Shown here one piece after another: positions 4,494 through 24,650 of a stretch of DNA of 33,703 nucleotides. Source of the stretch: Candidatus Altarchaeota archaeon (GTDB lineage Archaea; Altiarchaeota; Altiarchaeia; IMC4; QMZM01); the NCBI GenBank assembly GCA_030609775.1, contig JAUWTD010000009.1, positions 1-33,703 on the forward strand, written 5' to 3'. The number at the start of each line of letters is the position of its first letter. Position 1 is the first letter of the stretch. The notes beneath the pieces are model-generated. The model was not told the DNA's origin and did not search any database. It worked only from the letters and a program-made list of their open reading frames with translations. Made by a program: the position numbers and the translations under genes.

Positions 4494-5147
4494 TTAATAA
4501 CACCAAGGGGGTATGATTCGAATTGGTGCCTCGTTTCTAGGTATTCCAAACCAGTTTAAGGCTTTTGCTATGAGGTTTATAATAGAGAGCCCAATCCAAA
4601 ACATGACCATCAACAAAAATGAAGAGACTACCAAAAAGAAGATGAATATGATTAGGGATTTATCAAAGCCAAATCTCGCATTGATTGCAACATATAACAG
4701 ATACAGCCCATAGCCTATGCCCAGGTAATGCAAGACTATTGTTAATATATGGGCTCTGAATAGTCCAGTGAGCAGGACAACTGATAGAGGATATGCGATA
4801 ATAGAGATAATTTCTTCGGGTTCTACTTCCCTGCCAGTCAGGCCTTTACCGAAAAGAGAGATGATGGCCCCAGCTGCAATAGGCAAAAACACAAGAACAA
4901 GATAGGTAACAAACGCTGATTCAATAGCTGAATTAATCTGGCATGTGCTCTCAGAATCAAACCCTGCCTTATAATAGAGGTTCATAAAATAACCTATAAA
5001 GAGGGGGACACCAAAAGCCAATAGGTATCCGACCATATGACGGGAGGACTCCGGATCCAGTTCTTCGAAGAATTTGTTTGTTTTAGACGGAGTTATCATC
5101 CTAACAAAATTGATAACTTCGTTTTTAAATGACTTGATAAGACCCAT
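4494..5147 (-). CDS. Yip1-domain-like integral membrane protein
   Basis: About five hydrophobic segments; N-terminal amphipathic part then multi-TM core. Confidence 0.6.
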   Translation of the reverse strand: MGLIKSFKNEVINFVRMITPSKTNKFFEELDPESSRHMVGYLLAFGVPLFIGYFMNLYYKAGFDSESTCQINSAIESAFVTYLVLVFLPIAAGAIISLFGKGLTGREVEPEEIISIIAYPLSVVLLTGLFRAHILTIVLHYLGIGYGLYLLYVAINARFGFDKSLIIFIFFLVVSSFLLMVMFWIGLSIINLIAKALNWFGIPRNEAPIRIIPPWCY

Positions 5148-5212
5148 TTTTATCCCCAGATAGTTAATTGTTATTATTACTCTTTCATTAAATTAGTAAT
5201 CCGTAAATAAAA

Positions 5213-6331
5213 ATGTATAGCATTGTAGTAGTCAGATATGGAGAAATATTTTTAAAAAGCGAGTATGTTAAAAGAAAGTTTGAAAACAGATTCATAGAAA
5301 ATATACGATATATGCTCAAGAAAAAAGGTCTTGAAGGCAAAATCATGCGGAGAAGGCATAGAATATACATAAAAACCAGTGAAGCCGACCAGATTGCTCA
5401 TTTTCTGAGCAGGGTCTTTGGCGTGGTATCTGTAAGCCCTGCAATCGAAACCTCGGCAGATATTGAAATAATCGCTGAGGAAGGGCTTAAACTGGCAAAA
5501 AAAACAATATCAGAGAAAGAATGTTTCGCTGTGAGAGCCAAGAGAACAGGACAGCACAGCTTCGGCAGCATGGATGTGGAAAGAGCGGTCGCATCAAGGA
5601 TAATAGAGGAAATCGGTGCCCCGGTTAACTTAACTAACCCAGACAAAACAATATTTGTAGAGATAATGCAAGAAGACGCATTCGTATTTGATAAAAAGAT
5701 ACAAGGAGTGGGAGGACTACCCTATGGAACACAAAGCAAAGTCGTTGCGTTAGTCTCTTTGGGAATTGATTCCCCGGTGGCTGCGTGGATGATGATGCAT
5801 AGAGGCTGCAAGGTAGTTGCGCTGCACTTCAACATAGAAGAGAGGACAGGAGGAATAGAAGATATCCTAAAGGTACTTGAGGAGTTTTCCATTCACAGGA
5901 TAAAGCTTTATGTCGTACCCTATGACAATATTCTTGCAGATATTGCAAAAAATTCAGGCAAATATGCCTGCGTTATCTGTAAAAGAACCATGCTGAGGAT
6001 TGCACAAAAAATATCTGCCATAGAGAAAGCCCATGGCATAGTCACAGGAGACAGCATTGGACAGGTTGCAAGCCAGACCATCGAAAATTTGGAGACACTC
6101 AGCGAGGTTGCATCACCCATCTACAGGCCCTTGATAGGCATGGACAAAAAAGAGATAATAGACAAAGCAAGGATAATAGAAACCTATAAACTTGCGGATA
6201 AAAGAAGATGCTGGTTTGTACCTAAAAAACCTGCAACAATATCAGATCTGGATGAAATAAAGGCAATAGAGTCAAAGATAGGTATAGGGAAACTTATAGA
6301 TGAAATAGATTTAGAATGTTTAGTAAAATAG
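5213..6331 (+). CDS. thiI: tRNA 4-thiouridine sulfurtransferase ThiI (archaeal, no rhodanese domain)
   Basis: THUMP-like N-terminus, PP-loop VSLGIDSPVAAW, CVIC (CXXC) motif. Confidence 0.9.
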   Translation: MYSIVVVRYGEIFLKSEYVKRKFENRFIENIRYMLKKKGLEGKIMRRRHRIYIKTSEADQIAHFLSRVFGVVSVSPAIETSADIEIIAEEGLKLAKKTISEKECFAVRAKRTGQHSFGSMDVERAVASRIIEEIGAPVNLTNPDKTIFVEIMQEDAFVFDKKIQGVGGLPYGTQSKVVALVSLGIDSPVAAWMMMHRGCKVVALHFNIEERTGGIEDILKVLEEFSIHRIKLYVVPYDNILADIAKNSGKYACVICKRTMLRIAQKISAIEKAHGIVTGDSIGQVASQTIENLETLSEVASPIYRPLIGMDKKEIIDKARIIETYKLADKRRCWFVPKKPATISDLDEIKAIESKIGIGKLIDEIDLECLVK

Positions 6332-17024: not shown

Positions 17025-17459
17025 TTAATCCATCAAAGCCTTTATCTCACCTGTAGCAGCCTTCAATTTAACAAGAACCAAACCAATGTTCGCACCAGCA
17101 CTAATAAGAGCAACAAGAAGCGTCGAAAATCCAGCGTCAACAACTACAAGAGTGAACTCATCGGTCTCAGTATAAACCCAATACACACAATCATCCCGTA
17201 ATTCCTTTATCGTCGTCTCCGCCGCACAAAACATTGCCGCAGACATCCCTGAAAAAGCCATCACATCAACATCCCTCGGAAGCCTAGTAGATATCGGAAG
17301 ACCATCTTTGGTAATGGCTGCTATCCCCTTCATACCCTTAACCGAAATCTCCAGATTACGTAAAAGATATCCGAACGCATCTTTTTTAGAAACAGATCTC
17401 GTATCACTGGAGTCCTCTATTATCCACTTATGTAAACTACTCTCTTGTTTATCTACCAT
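17025..17459 (-). CDS. Roadblock/LC7-domain protein
   Basis: GIAAITKDGLPISTRLPRDVDVMAFSGMSAAMFCAAETTIKEL...ANIGLVLVKL; paralog of 18566..18937. Confidence 0.88.
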   Translation of the reverse strand: MVDKQESSLHKWIIEDSSDTRSVSKKDAFGYLLRNLEISVKGMKGIAAITKDGLPISTRLPRDVDVMAFSGMSAAMFCAAETTIKELRDDCVYWVYTETDEFTLVVVDAGFSTLLVALISAGANIGLVLVKLKAATGEIKALMD

Positions 17460-17537: not shown

Positions 17538-18443
17538 TTATTTAATATATCCTCTTTGGGTTAATTTATCCGCCAAATCAATAATGACATCCTCACCTAG
17601 ATTAAGGCTACCTGCAATCTCTTTCAATGTTCGCTTACCATTCATAAGTCCCATCGCAGTTAAGGCATTTGGAAACCTGAAAAATCTTAACTTATCAGCG
17701 AAACTGATAGTTTTCACAACCAAAGGCTTAGTTTTGAGCAAATCCATTTTATCATCGGTTGACTCCACCGCCTCTCCACCCTCATCCACAGCATTAACTT
17801 CATCCACCTGACTTAGGGTTTTATCCACTCCAACAGATAACTCCTTTGAATCTATCTTCTCCCACTCAACCTCCAACCTATGCCACTCCTCATCACACGC
17901 CCCTAATTCACTCAACCAGTCTTCATCTTCCTTTTTATTCCGACCATCCCCCCCACCAACAGCCTCCGAGGGTTTCTGTTCTGCCTTATATGCCTTAGCT
18001 ACCTTAGCTTCATCAAGGCCGCCTTCAGATCCATCACCCACTCCATTATCTACCTTATCCTGGTTTCCTCCAGAACCTATACATATCTCCTTGAAACGGT
18101 CGAGAGACAATGCAGACTTAAACATTATTTTCTCATTCACATTGAAAGCAAGAGACATTTCAGCATCATTAAACAGGTAAATTTCCACATCACAGTTATT
18201 ATCCCCAAGAACTTCTTTTTTTAACTCCTCAAAGGCTGCCTCACCATAAATGCTTGAATCATTACCAAGAGAAACACAGAGAATACTCCCATCATCCACT
18301 AACAGATCACATTTATAGGATCTATCATCTGCTTTAATAAAAATACGGATAACACCCCTAAAACCATCAGGCAGCTTCCCATAAACTGATTCAAGATTAG
18401 CTATCTTCTCGGAGAGAATATGTTTCCCCGCAGGTAGATCCAT
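17538..18443 (-). CDS. DUF2226-like N-terminal domain, acidic linker with Trp motif, C-terminal winged-helix-like segment
   Basis: MDLPAGKHILSEKIANLESVYGKLPDGFRGVIRIFI...DLLVDDGSILCVSLG; linker EEWHRLEVEWEKID; end NGKRTLKEIAGSLNLGEDVIIDLADKLTQRGYIK. ATG at 18443 preferred over 18476. Confidence 0.7.
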   Translation of the reverse strand: MDLPAGKHILSEKIANLESVYGKLPDGFRGVIRIFIKADDRSYKCDLLVDDGSILCVSLGNDSSIYGEAAFEELKKEVLGDNNCDVEIYLFNDAEMSLAFNVNEKIMFKSALSLDRFKEICIGSGGNQDKVDNGVGDGSEGGLDEAKVAKAYKAEQKPSEAVGGGDGRNKKEDEDWLSELGACDEEWHRLEVEWEKIDSKELSVGVDKTLSQVDEVNAVDEGGEAVESTDDKMDLLKTKPLVVKTISFADKLRFFRFPNALTAMGLMNGKRTLKEIAGSLNLGEDVIIDLADKLTQRGYIK

Positions 18444-18565: not shown

Positions 18566-18937
18566 TCATTTCATCAACTCCTTTGTTGCGTTCGCTACCT
18601 TTAGTATTTCTATAAGAACTAAACCCAGATTAGCTTCAGATCGCACTAAGGCAACCACCGCAGCACTCGGACCAGCATCCACAGCAACCAGTTTACAGTC
18701 CTCTGCTTCGGATATAACCCGTTTAACAGAACCCTTCTTTAATTCAGATACTGCAGTCTCAGCTGCACCATACATTGTCGCAGACATAGCAGCAAATGTC
18801 TCGGCATTAACATCTCTGGGTAAACGAGAAGCAACAAGTAACCCATCCCTAGTTGTTATAGCTGCACCATCTATATCCCCCACATTTTCAAGTTCTTTTA
18901 GTAGATCAGCAAGTTCCTCTTTTTTCGATTTTGGCAT
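18566..18937 (-). CDS. Roadblock/LC7-domain protein
   Basis: GAAITTRDGLLVASRLPRDVNAETFAAMSATMYGAAETAVSELKKG...ANLGLVLIEI. Confidence 0.92.
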   Translation of the reverse strand: MPKSKKEELADLLKELENVGDIDGAAITTRDGLLVASRLPRDVNAETFAAMSATMYGAAETAVSELKKGSVKRVISEAEDCKLVAVDAGPSAAVVALVRSEANLGLVLIEILKVANATKELMK

Positions 18938-18958: not shown

Positions 18959-20182
18959 TTAAACAATCCGGCTAAATAAAGCATCAAGAACCGCGTGCAC
19001 ATCCTCATCTTTTAATTTAGCAGGCTCATTCACCTTAACCTTGGATAAATCCTCCGCAGTCACTGGAACGATTGGCACAGCATCGGACACATGCATTTTT
19101 TCCCTGATTTTATCAATACTTAAAGCACCCTCGAGATTCGCTTTGTTTGCAACGATTACAACAGGCAAACCAATACTCTTAGACCTGATTAACATATCGT
19201 TCACCCTATGAAAACTCTGTTCGTTTGTTGAATCAACTACTGCGATAACCCCTAGGGATTCGCCGCCTAAAAGCTCGAGAATGGGATCAAATCTCTCCTG
19301 CCCCGGGGTTCCAAAGAGATCAACTGAAAAACCAGAGTAATCTACGTGACCATGATCCAATGCAACTGTTGTCCCCACCCGGTCAACTGAAACAGCTTTT
19401 GTCGAAGCAGAATGTACAAACGAGCTTTTCCCGGCATTATAGGCTCCAGTCACAAGAATCTTGGGAATATAAACTTTCACACCACCAGGCACAGATATCT
19501 TAAATGGAACAGATACACCCTCCTTTGATTTACCGTTCCATGAAACCTTTGAAACAATGAAAAACTCCCGAAGTATCACTTTCTCCTCTATCGCCTTTAG
19601 TTGGATGATTGCATCAGATATAAGCCGGGCCTTGTTAAGAACCTTAGTCTCATACGGCCATTCAGTGAACAAAAAAAAGCCTGTGGCATTTTTTTCCTTG
19701 AATATATCCTTCCACTTAATTAATTCATCTAAACAGTTTTCACCGCAGTGATCAATCAAGGTAGATAATGAATCACACACAACAAGAGTATGCCCCGACC
19801 CAGTAGCATCCAATGCATTTTTTAGGGCATCAGTTATCTGTGTTATATCCTTTGCATTCTTTACAGAAAACCTCTCCTCAGATTCGGCATTTATCAGACC
19901 ACTGTAGGCGTCAAGGAAAAAAAATTTACCCGCCTCCTTATATTTCTCAATACCCCAGCCATAGTGTCTAATCTCATCTTCAACAGTTAAACCCAGCTTT
20001 GACTGAGTTATATAGATACACGAATCCCCGGATTCAAGACGCTCCATAAGGGTCTGATATGCAAACGGGGCATTCTCTATCCCAGGATAGGCCCAGAGAA
20101 CAGTAAGTGTTGAAGGTTTTAATCCACCATCCAAAAATTCATCAAGACGAGGGATACTAGTAGCATATGTGTTCATTTTCAA
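18959..20182 (-). CDS. Walker-A-less KaiC-like domain fused to C-terminal Ras/MglA/CvnD-like small GTPase
   Basis: N-term TSIPRLDEFLDGGLKPSTLTVLWAYPGIENAPF, Walker-B-like LVVCDSLSTL; C-term G1 GAYNAGKSS, G3 DLFGTPGQERF, G4 NKAN. Confidence 0.88.
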   Translation of the reverse strand: MKMNTYATSIPRLDEFLDGGLKPSTLTVLWAYPGIENAPFAYQTLMERLESGDSCIYITQSKLGLTVEDEIRHYGWGIEKYKEAGKFFFLDAYSGLINAESEERFSVKNAKDITQITDALKNALDATGSGHTLVVCDSLSTLIDHCGENCLDELIKWKDIFKEKNATGFFLFTEWPYETKVLNKARLISDAIIQLKAIEEKVILREFFIVSKVSWNGKSKEGVSVPFKISVPGGVKVYIPKILVTGAYNAGKSSFVHSASTKAVSVDRVGTTVALDHGHVDYSGFSVDLFGTPGQERFDPILELLGGESLGVIAVVDSTNEQSFHRVNDMLIRSKSIGLPVVIVANKANLEGALSIDKIREKMHVSDAVPIVPVTAEDLSKVKVNEPAKLKDEDVHAVLDALFSRIV

Positions 20183-21259: not shown

Positions 21260-22741
21260 ATGAAAGAATGGACAAAAGAAACGAAAGGAAAACCCCACAA
21301 CATACATGATCTCATACAGGAGACAAGAGAGGCATTTATGGGTATGGGTTTTAATGAGGTCGAAAATCAAGTTTTTATCCCTGAAGATGACGTCTATAAG
21401 CAATACGGATCAGAAGCACCTATAATATTAGATAGATGCTATTATCTCGCAGGTCTTACCCGCCCAGATATTGGTCTTGGAAAAAATCAGATGAAGTCCA
21501 TAAGGGAAATAAGCCCGGAATTAGATTTTGAGTCATTCACTAAGATACTTAGAGAGTACAGGGAAGGCTCTGTTGAAGGTGATAACCTATCAGAGGAAAT
21601 GATGAATAGGCTTAAAATAGGTAAATGCGAAGCTATGAATATAATAGACATAATACCTGAGTTTAAAACAATAACTCCTGTTGCAAGCAGGATAACCCTG
21701 CGCTCCCATATGACAGCTGCCTGGTATCCTACACTCGTAGCAATGCAAGACACCTATGAGCTGCCACTTAGGTTGTTCTCCGTCGGCTTGAGATTCAGGC
21801 GAGAACAGAAGGTGGACGCAACCCATCTCAGGGTGCATTATGGGGCATCGTGTGTTGTCATGGATAACGACTTCAGCCTTGATGATGGAAAAAAACTAAG
21901 CTATGAAATACTCTCAAAACTTAGGTTCGAAAACAATAAATTTGTGAAAAAGACCGCCACATCAAACTATTATGAAGAGAACACTGAATTTGAGATCTAT
22001 TCAGATGACATCGAGATAGCTGACTGCGGCATGTATTCGAAGGTTTCGCTTTCAAATTATGGTATAAAGTATCCTGTATTCAACCTAGGCTTTGGCCTTG
22101 AAAGAATCCTGATGGTAAGACGTGATGAGGAGGACATACGCAGGATAATGTATCCCCAGTTTTACAGGGTATTGAATCTAAGCGATGAAGAAATCGCAGA
22201 AAATGTAAAAATCAAGCTAGAACCAAAGACAGAGGAAGGCAAAAAGCTTGTGGAACTTCTAAAGAAGTATGCTGAGAAGTATGGAAATGAAAAATCCCCC
22301 TGCAGGTTCCTTGTCTACTCCGGAAGTTTCCTTGGAAAGAATATTAGCATTTACCTTATTGAAAAAGAAGAGAACACAAAACTCCTTGGCCCTGCAGCAT
22401 TTAATGAGGTCTATGTTTACGAGGGAGGTGTTTACGGCATTCCAAGAGATGCTGGAAAGCTTGCCAAGAAGCTTGATGAGGTGAAAGAGAAGGGAATCTA
22501 TGCAGGTTTCTCTTATCTTGACGCTGTCTTAAATCTTTTTGCAGCAGGAATAGAAGAATTTATAAGAAAAGAAAAAAAAGAGGCCTTCTTCCAGGTTAAG
22601 ATGGCAAAAACGCCTGCAGACGTGAACATAACAGTAGGTAAGGCAGCTAGGAGATTTATAACCTCAAAGAATAAAGGCATTTATGTGAAGGGCCCGGTTT
22701 TCACTGCCCTGGAGGTGAATGCAGATGCAGTGAAGGAATAA
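21260..22741 (+). CDS. sepS: O-phosphoseryl-tRNA(Cys) synthetase (SepRS)
   Basis: Class II motifs; TPVASRITLRSHMTAAWYPTL, FSVGLRFRREQKVDATHLRVHYGASCVVMD, NLGFGLERILMV. Confidence 0.93.
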   Translation: MKEWTKETKGKPHNIHDLIQETREAFMGMGFNEVENQVFIPEDDVYKQYGSEAPIILDRCYYLAGLTRPDIGLGKNQMKSIREISPELDFESFTKILREYREGSVEGDNLSEEMMNRLKIGKCEAMNIIDIIPEFKTITPVASRITLRSHMTAAWYPTLVAMQDTYELPLRLFSVGLRFRREQKVDATHLRVHYGASCVVMDNDFSLDDGKKLSYEILSKLRFENNKFVKKTATSNYYEENTEFEIYSDDIEIADCGMYSKVSLSNYGIKYPVFNLGFGLERILMVRRDEEDIRRIMYPQFYRVLNLSDEEIAENVKIKLEPKTEEGKKLVELLKKYAEKYGNEKSPCRFLVYSGSFLGKNISIYLIEKEENTKLLGPAAFNEVYVYEGGVYGIPRDAGKLAKKLDEVKEKGIYAGFSYLDAVLNLFAAGIEEFIRKEKKEAFFQVKMAKTPADVNITVGKAARRFITSKNKGIYVKGPVFTALEVNADAVKE

Positions 22742-22856
22742 TTAAGGTAACATTTATATACCAAAGTACAGATATATAACATAATCATAATAGATATTCA
22801 ACATAACCATAAATTTTTGATACAATCTATGAATTTGGGTGTTAAATATAAAAAAA

Positions 22857-24650
22857 ATGAAGCCCACCCTCCAAATTACTGCCAACCTTGAGAACCTCAA
22901 TGATGCAATCAAGATGGTGAAGAATGCAGTTTCCACAAACAGTGTAGGCTGGATAAGCATAGGGAAAAAACTCATAAAGAGCAATGGACTTCACGCCGTT
23001 AAAGAATTCAAAAAAAGATTCCCAGAAAAACACATCATAGTAGACATAAGCATTCTCGGACGCTCCCGCACACTGACGTCAGTAACAGACGCAGGCACAG
23101 ATATTCTGATGATACCTGACTACACATCAGGAGACATAACACAAAAATTCATTGAGGAATTCAAGAAAAACGGAATTGAAACAATGGTCGACCTAACAAA
23201 AGAATCCTCTCGGATAGATATCCCGAAAAAATTAGAGAAAATGGGTATCGACTACATAATAGTCAGTTTAGACGACCTTGAGGCTGTTTCAGAATCCATC
23301 ACCATACCCATAGCAGTTAAAATAGATCCAAATCGAGAAGATGTTTCCGATGCAGTTAACCTCGGAGCACAAATCATAGTACTTGACGAATCAATAACCA
23401 AAAAAGAAAACATAAAAGAGATTATTTATGATGTAAATAAAACACTTGCAGAAATACCCACACCAGAAACTGAACCAGGAACACATGAAGAACGCCAAAA
23501 CATACACAAAAACATACACACATACAAAGGATACATGGAAGGGAAACCATTAGAAGAAATGGAAAAAAATCCAACAGAATACGAAACCACAAGAGAAAAG
23601 AAAACCCAAAACATAAAACAAGAGCTAGATGAAATAAGAAATGAATGGAATAAGATAGAAAATGAATGGATTAGATTAGACGAAAATAAACAAGAGCTAG
23701 ATGAAAAGATACAAAAAATTGATTCAGAGTGGAAGAGAATAGAAAACCTAAAAGAGGAAGGATACCTGATTTCAGAGAATAATACAACAAAAAATGAAGA
23801 AAGTAGAGAATCAGAGGAAAATAGGTTAAGTGGAATAGAATTAAATGAGGTTGAAAAAGAATGGGGGGATATAGAAAACATGTGGAACAGAATAAACAAA
23901 GAAAAACAAGAAGCGGAGACAAAGAAAATAGAGATTGAAGAAGAATGGAAGAGATTGGCTGCAATGAGAGAAAAAATAGAACAAGAACAAGAAACAATAA
24001 ACAAACAAAGAGATGAAATAGAACAAGAACAAGAAACAATAAACAAACAAAGAGATGAGATGGATGCATACAGAATTTCAGATCTGGTTAAGCGTGTATC
24101 AGACATCAACAAGATAGAGATTAGTGAGGTACACAGAAAGGATAAAGTAGATAAGCTCACAGAATTAGAAAACGGCCTAAATAAAAAACAGATAGAGATC
24201 AAAGAAACTAAAGATGGATTAAATGCCAAAGAAGAAAAGATAAATAAAGAAATTAAGATGCTCGAAGAGGAATGGCATAAAATCGATGACATAAAAAGAA
24301 GATGGGGTGAAGAAGAAGACATAAAAAGAAGCGCAAATGGGTCTCTTGCATACCTCCAGAAACTCAAAAGAGAACATGAAAAACCAAAAACAAAGACAAA
24401 AGAAAAAGACAATCTAACAGACGATAAGACAAAAGACATGATCAATAGACTGATAGATCTTGTAGATGAAAGAGGAGAAATCAAACTCAAAGACGCTGCA
24501 AAAGAACTGCAGATTCAAGAATATCTTGCAAGAAGATGGACTAACCTCCTTGAAAAAAGATATATAATCGAAGTCAAAACACCCCTTGTCGGAGACATCA
24601 TACTTAAAAGAGGTGCAAACATAAACAAAATAAGCAAGTCACGGCAATAA
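22857..24650 (+). CDS. Degenerate HPS/OMPDC-like barrel + long coiled coil + C-terminal winged helix
   Basis: LQITANLENLNDAIKMVKNAV...GKKLIKSNGLHAVKEFKKRFPEKHIIVDISILGRS; Glu/Lys/Trp-rich coil; LVDERGEIKLKDAAKELQIQEYLARRWTNLLEKRYIIEVKTP. ATG at 22857 preferred over GTG at 22839. Confidence 0.78.
   Translation: MKPTLQITANLENLNDAIKMVKNAVSTNSVGWISIGKKLIKSNGLHAVKEFKKRFPEKHIIVDISILGRSRTLTSVTDAGTDILMIPDYTSGDITQKFIEEFKKNGIETMVDLTKESSRIDIPKKLEKMGIDYIIVSLDDLEAVSESITIPIAVKIDPNREDVSDAVNLGAQIIVLDESITKKENIKEIIYDVNKTLAEIPTPETEPGTHEERQNIHKNIHTYKGYMEGKPLEEMEKNPTEYETTREKKTQNIKQELDEIRNEWNKIENEWIRLDENKQELDEKIQKIDSEWKRIENLKEEGYLISENNTTKNEESRESEENRLSGIELNEVEKEWGDIENMWNRINKEKQEAETKKIEIEEEWKRLAAMREKIEQEQETINKQRDEIEQEQETINKQRDEMDAYRISDLVKRVSDINKIEISEVHRKDKVDKLTELENGLNKKQIEIKETKDGLNAKEEKINKEIKMLEEEWHKIDDIKRRWGEEEDIKRSANGSLAYLQKLKREHEKPKTKTKEKDNLTDDKTKDMINRLIDLVDERGEIKLKDAAKELQIQEYLARRWTNLLEKRYIIEVKTPLVGDIILKRGANINKISKSRQ
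23976..24059 (+). repeat. Two tandem 42-bp in-frame repeats encoding IEQEQETINKQRDE
   Basis: Units 23976-24017 and 24018-24059, essentially identical. Confidence 0.9.

What the first reader, a model, noticed from the sequence alone, without database searches (positions are those of the whole stretch)
22857..24650. Pseudo-enzyme barrel + coiled coil + winged helix
The N-terminus resembles 3-hexulose-6-phosphate synthase (OMPDC superfamily), but the catalytic DxKxxD stretch reads D-I-S-I-L-G (about 23043-23060), so Lys and the second Asp are missing. A roughly 300-residue Glu/Lys/Trp-rich coil and a C-terminal winged helix follow. Inference: a sugar-phosphate-sensing or structural regulator derived from a metabolic enzyme, possibly DNA-binding and filament-like.
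Basis: partly seen in the sequence, partly recalled or inferred. Interest (0 to 1): 0.75.

Follow-up and report, generated by a model that had tools for sequence, protein, structure and literature searches.

The report
Dead-enzyme barrel on coiled-coil scaffold
An uncultivated archaeon has turned a duplicate of a sugar-metabolism enzyme into an inactive cap on a long rod-like protein, which looks like an internal scaffold linked by a shared tryptophan motif to a neighbouring cell-signalling gene cluster.

Summary
Window 22857-24650 encodes a 597-residue protein. Its N-terminus is a true HPS/OMPDC-fold (beta/alpha)8 barrel (best PDB match is an HPS, TM 0.81). A roughly 280-residue Glu/Lys/Trp coiled coil and a winged helix follow. 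DxKxxD reads DISILG at exactly 23043-23060. The organism is an altiarchaeote. Nine barrel-bearing orthologs, all in one GTDB family, form one fast-evolving clade. All nine lack the second Asp, and only four keep the Lys. The beta-6 His, beta-7 GG and beta-8 phosphate-loop Gly are gone wherever readable, while 30 genuine HPS keep them. So the barrel is a fixed pseudoenzyme, but "sugar-phosphate sensor" is not supported, because the phosphate site is lost too. One relative lost the barrel by an exact in-frame 606-bp deletion and kept coil plus winged helix; another also lacks it. New here: a rare Trp-heptad motif, E-W-x-x-[IL]-[ED]-x-x-W-x-x-[IL], is shared almost exclusively with a DUF2226-like gene of the neighbouring KaiC-GTPase/roadblock cluster, a membrane propeller protein's cytoplasmic tail, and ParA-linked coils. 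Best reading: a cytoplasmic coiled-coil scaffold resembling FrzS/AglZ in architecture. DNA binding is unproven. New variant of a known kind.

The parts
22857..24650 (+). Whole gene: pseudo-HPS barrel + Trp-heptad coiled coil + winged helix, 597 aa
   Evidence: ORF; orthologs
22857..23456 (+). Degenerate HPS (OMPDC-superfamily) (beta/alpha)8 barrel, residues 1-200
23043..23060 (+). Remnant of catalytic DxKxxD, reads DISILG
23562..24392 (+). Glu/Lys/Trp-rich coiled coil, residues about 236-512
23622..24053 (+). Two tandem ~72-residue coil repeats (residues 256-327 and 328-399), each carrying W-x6-W-x20-W; 23 of 75 identical at shift 72 versus 6-10 at neighbouring shifts
23643..23678 (+). Double-Trp motif 1, EWNKIENEWIRL
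23859..23894 (+). Double-Trp motif 2, EWGDIENMWNRI
24411..24626 (+). C-terminal winged helix, residues 519-590
17538..18443 (-). DUF2226-like protein with the same double-Trp motif (EEWHRLEVEWEKI); proposed partner
18566..18937 (-). Roadblock-like 123-aa protein of the linked cluster; family assigned by 45% identity to the neighbouring Pfam Robl_LC7 protein at 17025-17459
18959..20182 (-). KaiC-like domain without a Walker A motif fused to an apparently intact Ras/MglA-like small GTPase
21260..22741 (+). SepS-like (O-phosphoserine-tRNA ligase) gene immediately upstream; housekeeping neighbour, named from family knowledge

Best explanation
The protein is a lineage-specific coiled-coil scaffold of one Altiarchaeota family. 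A duplicated HPS barrel lost both its catalytic and its phosphate-binding sites and was kept as a folded, non-catalytic head, probably for protein binding or dimerisation. The Trp-heptad rod is the constant part: it probably pairs with, or shares a binding partner with, the DUF2226-like protein of the neighbouring KaiC-GTPase/roadblock cluster through a common double-Trp heptad. The winged helix, where present, docks to DNA or to another protein. Shown by computation: fold, loss of both sites, single origin of the barrel clade, barrel dispensability in relatives, motif sharing, gene linkage. Inferred: scaffold role, the partner, and any role in polarity or GTPase output.
For: Catalytic and phosphate residues are lost in all nine (or all eight covered) orthologs against near-invariance in 30 genuine HPS. 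The barrel clade has 100/100 support and evolves faster than the genuine HPS of the same genomes, 49 vs 71% and 25 vs 64% identity. The model is still a well-predicted barrel. The barrel is deleted in-frame in G005 with start and coil kept, and absent from G003, so the coil is the core. In 8 family genomes (~10 Mb) the double-Trp DNA pattern hits 11 times, reversed control 0; 10 hits lie in this gene and the DUF2226-like gene and 1 in a membrane protein's cytoplasmic tail. The cluster DUF2226-like / roadblock-like / KaiC-GTPase / ThiL / SepS / this gene is conserved in most family genomes. In genus g4, which lacks roadblock and the GTPase half, the DUF2226-like gene is retained, and in G004 it lies on the same contig as this gene.
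Against: No experiment or complex prediction shows an interaction. The motif was noticed by eye before it was counted. Gene order around SepS is broadly conserved in this family, so linkage may be inertia, and in G006 and G007 the gene is not beside SepS. Absence of GTPase and roadblock in g4 weakens a GTPase-effector role. Three orthologs lack the winged helix.
Confidence: 0.5

Rival explanations
1. One reading: a sugar-phosphate-sensing, DNA-binding transcription regulator in which the dead barrel is the ligand domain and the winged helix binds DNA.
For: Barrel fold of a sugar-phosphate enzyme; winged helix with MarR/ArsR/AspA-like fold.
Against: Phosphate-binding beta-7 and beta-8 loops and the beta-6 loop are lost in all orthologs that cover them. 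The barrel is deleted in a relative that keeps coil plus winged helix, and the winged helix is missing in others that keep the barrel. A ~280-residue rod (over 1000 residues in G004) is unusual for a repressor.
Confidence: 0.1
2. A chromosome-organising or segregation scaffold: the winged helix binds DNA, the coil bridges, and the barrel caps a dimer, as in winged-helix plus coil proteins of ParA- or SMC-type systems.
For: Winged-helix Foldseek hits include the centromere-binding proteins AspA and the pNOB8 protein. Related Trp-heptad coils in G006 and G008 sit next to a ParA-type ATPase gene.
Against: No ParA gene is linked to this protein. The winged helix is not universal. The strongest motif links are to a DUF2226-like protein and a membrane tail, not to DNA proteins.
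Confidence: 0.2
3. Effector of the linked MglA-like GTPase and roadblock proteins, working like Myxococcus FrzS/AglZ (pseudo-receiver plus coiled coil) in polarity or surface-structure control. This is a narrower form of the scaffold reading and overlaps with it.
For: GTPase with intact GxxxxGKS, GTPGQ and NKxD-type motifs and a roadblock-like gene in the conserved cluster. FrzS has a non-phosphorylatable pseudo-receiver plus a 258-residue coil, and AglZ has a similar domain structure (PMC1974792).
Against: Genus g4 keeps the protein without roadblock or GTPase half. Linkage may be inertia. No motility phenotype is known here.
Confidence: 0.25
4. The barrel is an active enzyme with altered chemistry.
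For: The fold is intact, and some orthologs keep the beta-2 Glu and the first Asp of beta-3.
Against: The second Asp is lost in all nine, Lys in five, the phosphate site in all that cover it; retained residues differ from ortholog to ortholog; the barrel is lacking in two relatives.
Confidence: 0.04

Closest known systems
3-hexulose-6-phosphate synthase domain of archaeal HPS-RraA / HPS-PHI (NF005442, NF041755; PDB 9lj9)
   Same: Fold, topology and detectable sequence homology along the whole barrel
   Different: DxKxxD, beta-1 Asp, beta-6 His, beta-7 GG and beta-8 Gly lost; RraA/PHI partner domain replaced by a coiled coil
Myxococcus FrzS / AglZ (pseudo-receiver + coiled coil)
   Same: Inactive enzyme-like N-terminal domain plus long coiled coil (PMC1974792), here in a context of MglA-like GTPase and roadblock-like genes
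   Different: The head is an HPS barrel, not a receiver; extra winged helix; archaeal; an analogy of architecture, no homology shown
Winged-helix domains of the MarR / ArsR / AspA class
   Same: Same small fold
   Different: No Pfam family reached its cut-off; the domain sits at the end of a coil; paralogs carry it at the N-terminus of other coiled coils
DUF2226 (PF09987) proteins of archaea
   Same: The neighbouring protein matches DUF2226 above its gathering score and shares the double-Trp motif
   Different: This protein has no DUF2226 domain itself

Membership tests
3-hexulose-6-phosphate synthase (functional enzyme) | OMPDC-superfamily (beta/alpha)8 fold with HPS sequence similarity | tested here: met
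3-hexulose-6-phosphate synthase (functional enzyme) | Catalytic DxKxxD on beta-3 | tested here: not met
   DISILG here; second Asp 0 of 9 orthologs, Lys 4 of 9, versus 30 of 30 genuine HPS
3-hexulose-6-phosphate synthase (functional enzyme) | Phosphate-binding loops of beta-7 (GG) and beta-8 (VG[GSA]) | tested here: not met
   Lost in all 8 orthologs covering the region
3-hexulose-6-phosphate synthase (functional enzyme) | NCBIfam equivalog score | tested here: not met
   92.3 bits against cut-off 593 for the best model
FrzS/AglZ-like polarity scaffold | Inactive enzyme-like N-terminal domain followed by a long coiled coil | tested here: met
FrzS/AglZ-like polarity scaffold | Receiver-domain homology | tested here: not met
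   Head is an HPS barrel
FrzS/AglZ-like polarity scaffold | Function with an MglA-type GTPase | not testable with these tools
   Only genomic linkage, absent in genus g4
DNA-binding winged-helix regulator | Winged-helix fold | tested here: met
DNA-binding winged-helix regulator | Binds DNA | not testable with these tools
   The fold class includes DNA-binding and non-DNA-binding members
Coiled-coil filament protein | Heptad periodicity over a long segment | tested here: met
   Sub-segments p at most 0.004 by shuffling
Coiled-coil filament protein | Assembles into filaments | not testable with these tools
   Needs biochemistry or microscopy

The most novel reading that the evidence does not exclude
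An Altiarchaeota-specific intracellular scaffold system built on tryptophan-core coiled coils: one motif, E-W-x-x-[IL]-[ED]-x-x-W-x-x-[IL], joins a surface beta-propeller protein's cytoplasmic tail, a DUF2226-like protein of a KaiC-GTPase/roadblock module, ParA-linked coils and a rod capped by a dead HPS enzyme. It would be an archaeal cytoskeleton-like polarity machinery not described before.
Probability: 0.2. Interest if true: 0.75.

Novelty: new variant of a known kind. Interest (0 to 1): 0.52.

Why it matters
It is a clear case of a central-carbon enzyme duplicated, stripped of its active site across a whole clade, and reused as the head of a structural protein. Intermediates (some still with the Lys or the beta-2 Glu) and a later clean loss of the barrel are visible in relatives. 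The shared double-Trp heptad gives specific, testable partners for otherwise unannotated Altiarchaeota proteins, and points to a possible cytoskeletal or polarity module in a phylum whose cell organisation is little known.

Tried and rejected
Active HPS with shifted catalytic residues: rejected, no DxKxxD anywhere in any of the nine barrels.

Barrel as a chance TIM-like match: rejected, HPS is the top hit by profile, sequence and structure.

Architecture outside Altiarchaeota: a scan of 85,462 genomes with three close orthologs returned only two altiarchaeotes with the coil. The Scalindua-type hits inspected (two of five read) are genuine HPS-RraA proteins with no coil in the reading frame. 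That scan reaches only close relatives.

ParA linkage of this protein: not found. The best ParA-like genes of the window's own genome, its genus-mate, G011 and G005 sit beside unrelated, partly chemotaxis-like genes.

Other double-Trp hits in families f3 and f5: judged chance, in globular or membrane contexts.

Pfam name for the winged helix: none above cut-off. Solved relatives of the winged helix by sequence: none.

Literature on HPS pseudoenzymes, on DUF2226 in archaea, or on roadblock proteins in Altiarchaeota: nothing specific in the held library.

Alignment A1 could not seed a genome scan.

Full report
THE OBSERVATION. Window 22857-24650 (+) is one open frame of 597 residues. Profile search gives HPS families as the top hits (NF005442 bifunctional HPS/RraA E 2.4e-26, HxlAB 1.9e-19, HxlA 6.9e-16), all far below their equivalog cut-offs. 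PDB sequence search gives HPS 9lj9 at E 7e-20. An AlphaFold2 model of residues 1-215 from 25 aligned sequences has pLDDT 89.8 with the strand/helix order of a complete (beta/alpha)8 barrel. Foldseek ranks HPS 9lj9 first (E 2.6e-15, TM 0.81), then KGPDC and HPS entries. DxKxxD reads DISILG at 23043-23060 exactly as stated. The coil (about residues 236-512) is Glu/Lys-rich, with seven of its eight tryptophans in W-x-x-[IL] contexts. Hydrophobic periodicity near 3.5 is significant in each sub-segment, p at most 0.004. It contains two tandem ~72-residue repeats, 23 of 75 identical at shift 72 against 6-10 at other shifts. The winged helix is modelled at pLDDT 86.5 and matches MarR/ArsR/AspA-type folds.

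ORGANISM AND ORTHOLOGS. Orthologs named in the genome collection are Candidatus Altiarchaeota archaea. Barrel-bearing orthologs were found in eight other genomes, all of the same GTDB family f1. The other families of the class gave only genuine HPS hits or separate winged-helix hits in that search. The coil/winged-helix end alone was found in further f1 genomes (G003, G005, G007; in G007 the gene runs off the contig).

THE PSEUDOENZYME IS REAL, AND DEEPER THAN STATED. Nine pseudo-barrels were aligned with 30 genuine HPS. The second Asp of DxKxxD is 0 of 9 against 30 of 30. Lys is 4 of 9 against 30 of 30. The beta-1 Asp is 3 of 9 and the beta-2 Glu 5 of 9, against all genuine sequences that cover them. 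The beta-6 His is 0 of 8, the first Gly of the beta-7 GG pair 0 of 8, and the beta-8 Gly 0 of 8, with one truncated sequence (L045) not covering these. The phosphate-binding elements are therefore gone together with the catalytic ones, which argues against sugar-phosphate sensing at the ancestral site. No DxKxxD occurs elsewhere in these domains. The barrels form one clade (100/100), with long branches noted by the program. They diverge faster than the genuine HPS of the same genomes, e.g. 49 vs 71% and 25 vs 64% identity. The same genome keeps an HPS-RraA gene (G000:C40, cut at the contig start) and a Fae-HPS-type gene (G000:C10), so HPS function is not missing.

THE BARREL IS DISPENSABLE; THE COIL IS THE CORE. 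In G005 the gene starts with the same upstream sequence and start codon as in its genus-mate G011, then lacks exactly 606 bp (202 codons), with the junction at a short repeat, and continues in frame through coil and winged helix at 84% nucleotide identity over the aligned part. G003 also has coil plus winged helix without barrel. Conversely G004 (1451 aa), G006 and G008 keep barrel and coil and end, inside their contigs, without the winged helix. Between the window and its genus-mate the winged helix is 64%, the barrel 52% and the coil 40% identical.

NEIGHBOURHOOD. In most f1 genomes the order is DUF2226-like / roadblock-like / KaiC-GTPase / ThiL / SepS / this gene, as far as the contigs reach. 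The KaiC-like half has lost the Walker A motif, while the GTPase half has GxxxxGKS, GTPGQ and NKxD-type motifs. The KaiC-GTPase fusion is confined to f1 and one f3 genome among 29 of the class. Caution: the surroundings are broadly syntenic in this family, so linkage alone is weak evidence. In G006 the gene sits beside genes that read as a V/A-type ATPase operon, and in G007 away from SepS. Genus g4 (G004, G010) has no roadblock match and no GTPase half, yet keeps the DUF2226-like gene; these genomes are incomplete drafts.

THE DOUBLE-TRYPTOPHAN MOTIF. The coil carries E-W-x-x-[IL]-[ED]-x-x-W-x-x-[IL] twice; Trp and Ile/Leu sit three apart and the Trp pair seven apart, which fits a/d heptad positions. 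In 413 ORFs of the fetched loci the relaxed motif occurs only in this family, in the DUF2226-like proteins of the cluster, and once in a hydrophobic glycosyltransferase-like protein. In charged ORFs it is seen 9 times, against 0.14 expected by shuffling. In eight whole genomes the DNA pattern hits 11 times, reversed control 0: five in this family, five in DUF2226-like genes (one a broken copy in G002), one in the extreme C-terminal cytoplasmic tail of an FG-GAP-repeat membrane protein in G001. Across the class the only further convincing hits are DUF2226-like genes in g4 and Trp-heptad coils of G006 and G008, each with a ParA-type ATPase gene beside it (in G008 on another contig that carries the start of such a coil). 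In the G006 protein 14 of 15 Trp-Trp spacings are multiples of seven. The motif was noticed by eye before it was counted, which I discount for; the reversed-pattern control was run with the count.

MECHANISM. Shown: dead barrel, lost phosphate site, single origin, dispensability, coil core, motif sharing, linkage. Inferred: the rod scaffolds a complex with the DUF2226-like protein and perhaps the GTPase/roadblock module and the membrane; the barrel is a binding or dimerisation head; the winged helix is an optional docking domain. FrzS and AglZ of Myxococcus (non-phosphorylatable pseudo-receiver plus coil, PMC1974792) are a good analogy of design, not relatives. I put the scaffold reading at about 0.5, chromosome-organising 0.2, GTPase effector specifically 0.25 (overlapping with the scaffold reading), sugar-phosphate-sensing regulator 0.1.

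VERDICT.

Noticed in passing
L145:2482-4794(-) and 4797-5651(-) (G006); L144:3-1184(+) and L165:1-1507(-) (G008): Trp-heptad coiled-coil gene next to a ParA-type ATPase gene; in the 770-aa G006 protein all 16 Trp are in E-W-x-x-[IL] contexts and 14 of 15 Trp spacings are multiples of 7.
   Followed up: partly
L134:2587-4641(-) (G001): 684-aa protein with apparent signal peptide, FG-GAP repeats, TPR-like region and a TM helix, ending in a cytoplasmic double-Trp motif (KEWESLEEHWKKLEEI).
   Followed up: partly
L048:6871-9259(+) (G008); L110:13948-15423(+) (G015): Bacterial DnaA ATPase domain (PF00308, E 2.8e-66) embedded in a winged-helix/coiled-coil archaeal protein in G008, and a protein in G015 whose sequence looks DnaA-like.
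   Followed up: no
window 18959-20182(-): KaiC-like domain that has lost its Walker A motif, fused to an apparently intact Ras/MglA-like GTPase; in G010 (L143:1105-1839) the GTPase half is missing.
   Followed up: partly
L109:4499-7308(+) (G014, family f3): A genuine HPS-RraA gene lies directly upstream of SepS, on the same strand; in f1 the pseudo-HPS lies directly downstream of SepS, which may hint at a local duplication.
   Followed up: no
L035:3340-3720(-) (G002): The DUF2226-like gene is broken there (internal loss and frame shift), in a genome that keeps this gene.
   Followed up: no
L039:7390-8300 against L041:9700-10060(-): Exact in-frame 606-bp deletion of the barrel in G005 relative to G011, with its junction at a short direct repeat.
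   Followed up: yes
window 22735-22857: Upstream region has an archaeal TATA-like stretch (tttatata near 22754) about 100 bases before the ATG; the sigma-70 scan is not informative here.
   Followed up: no
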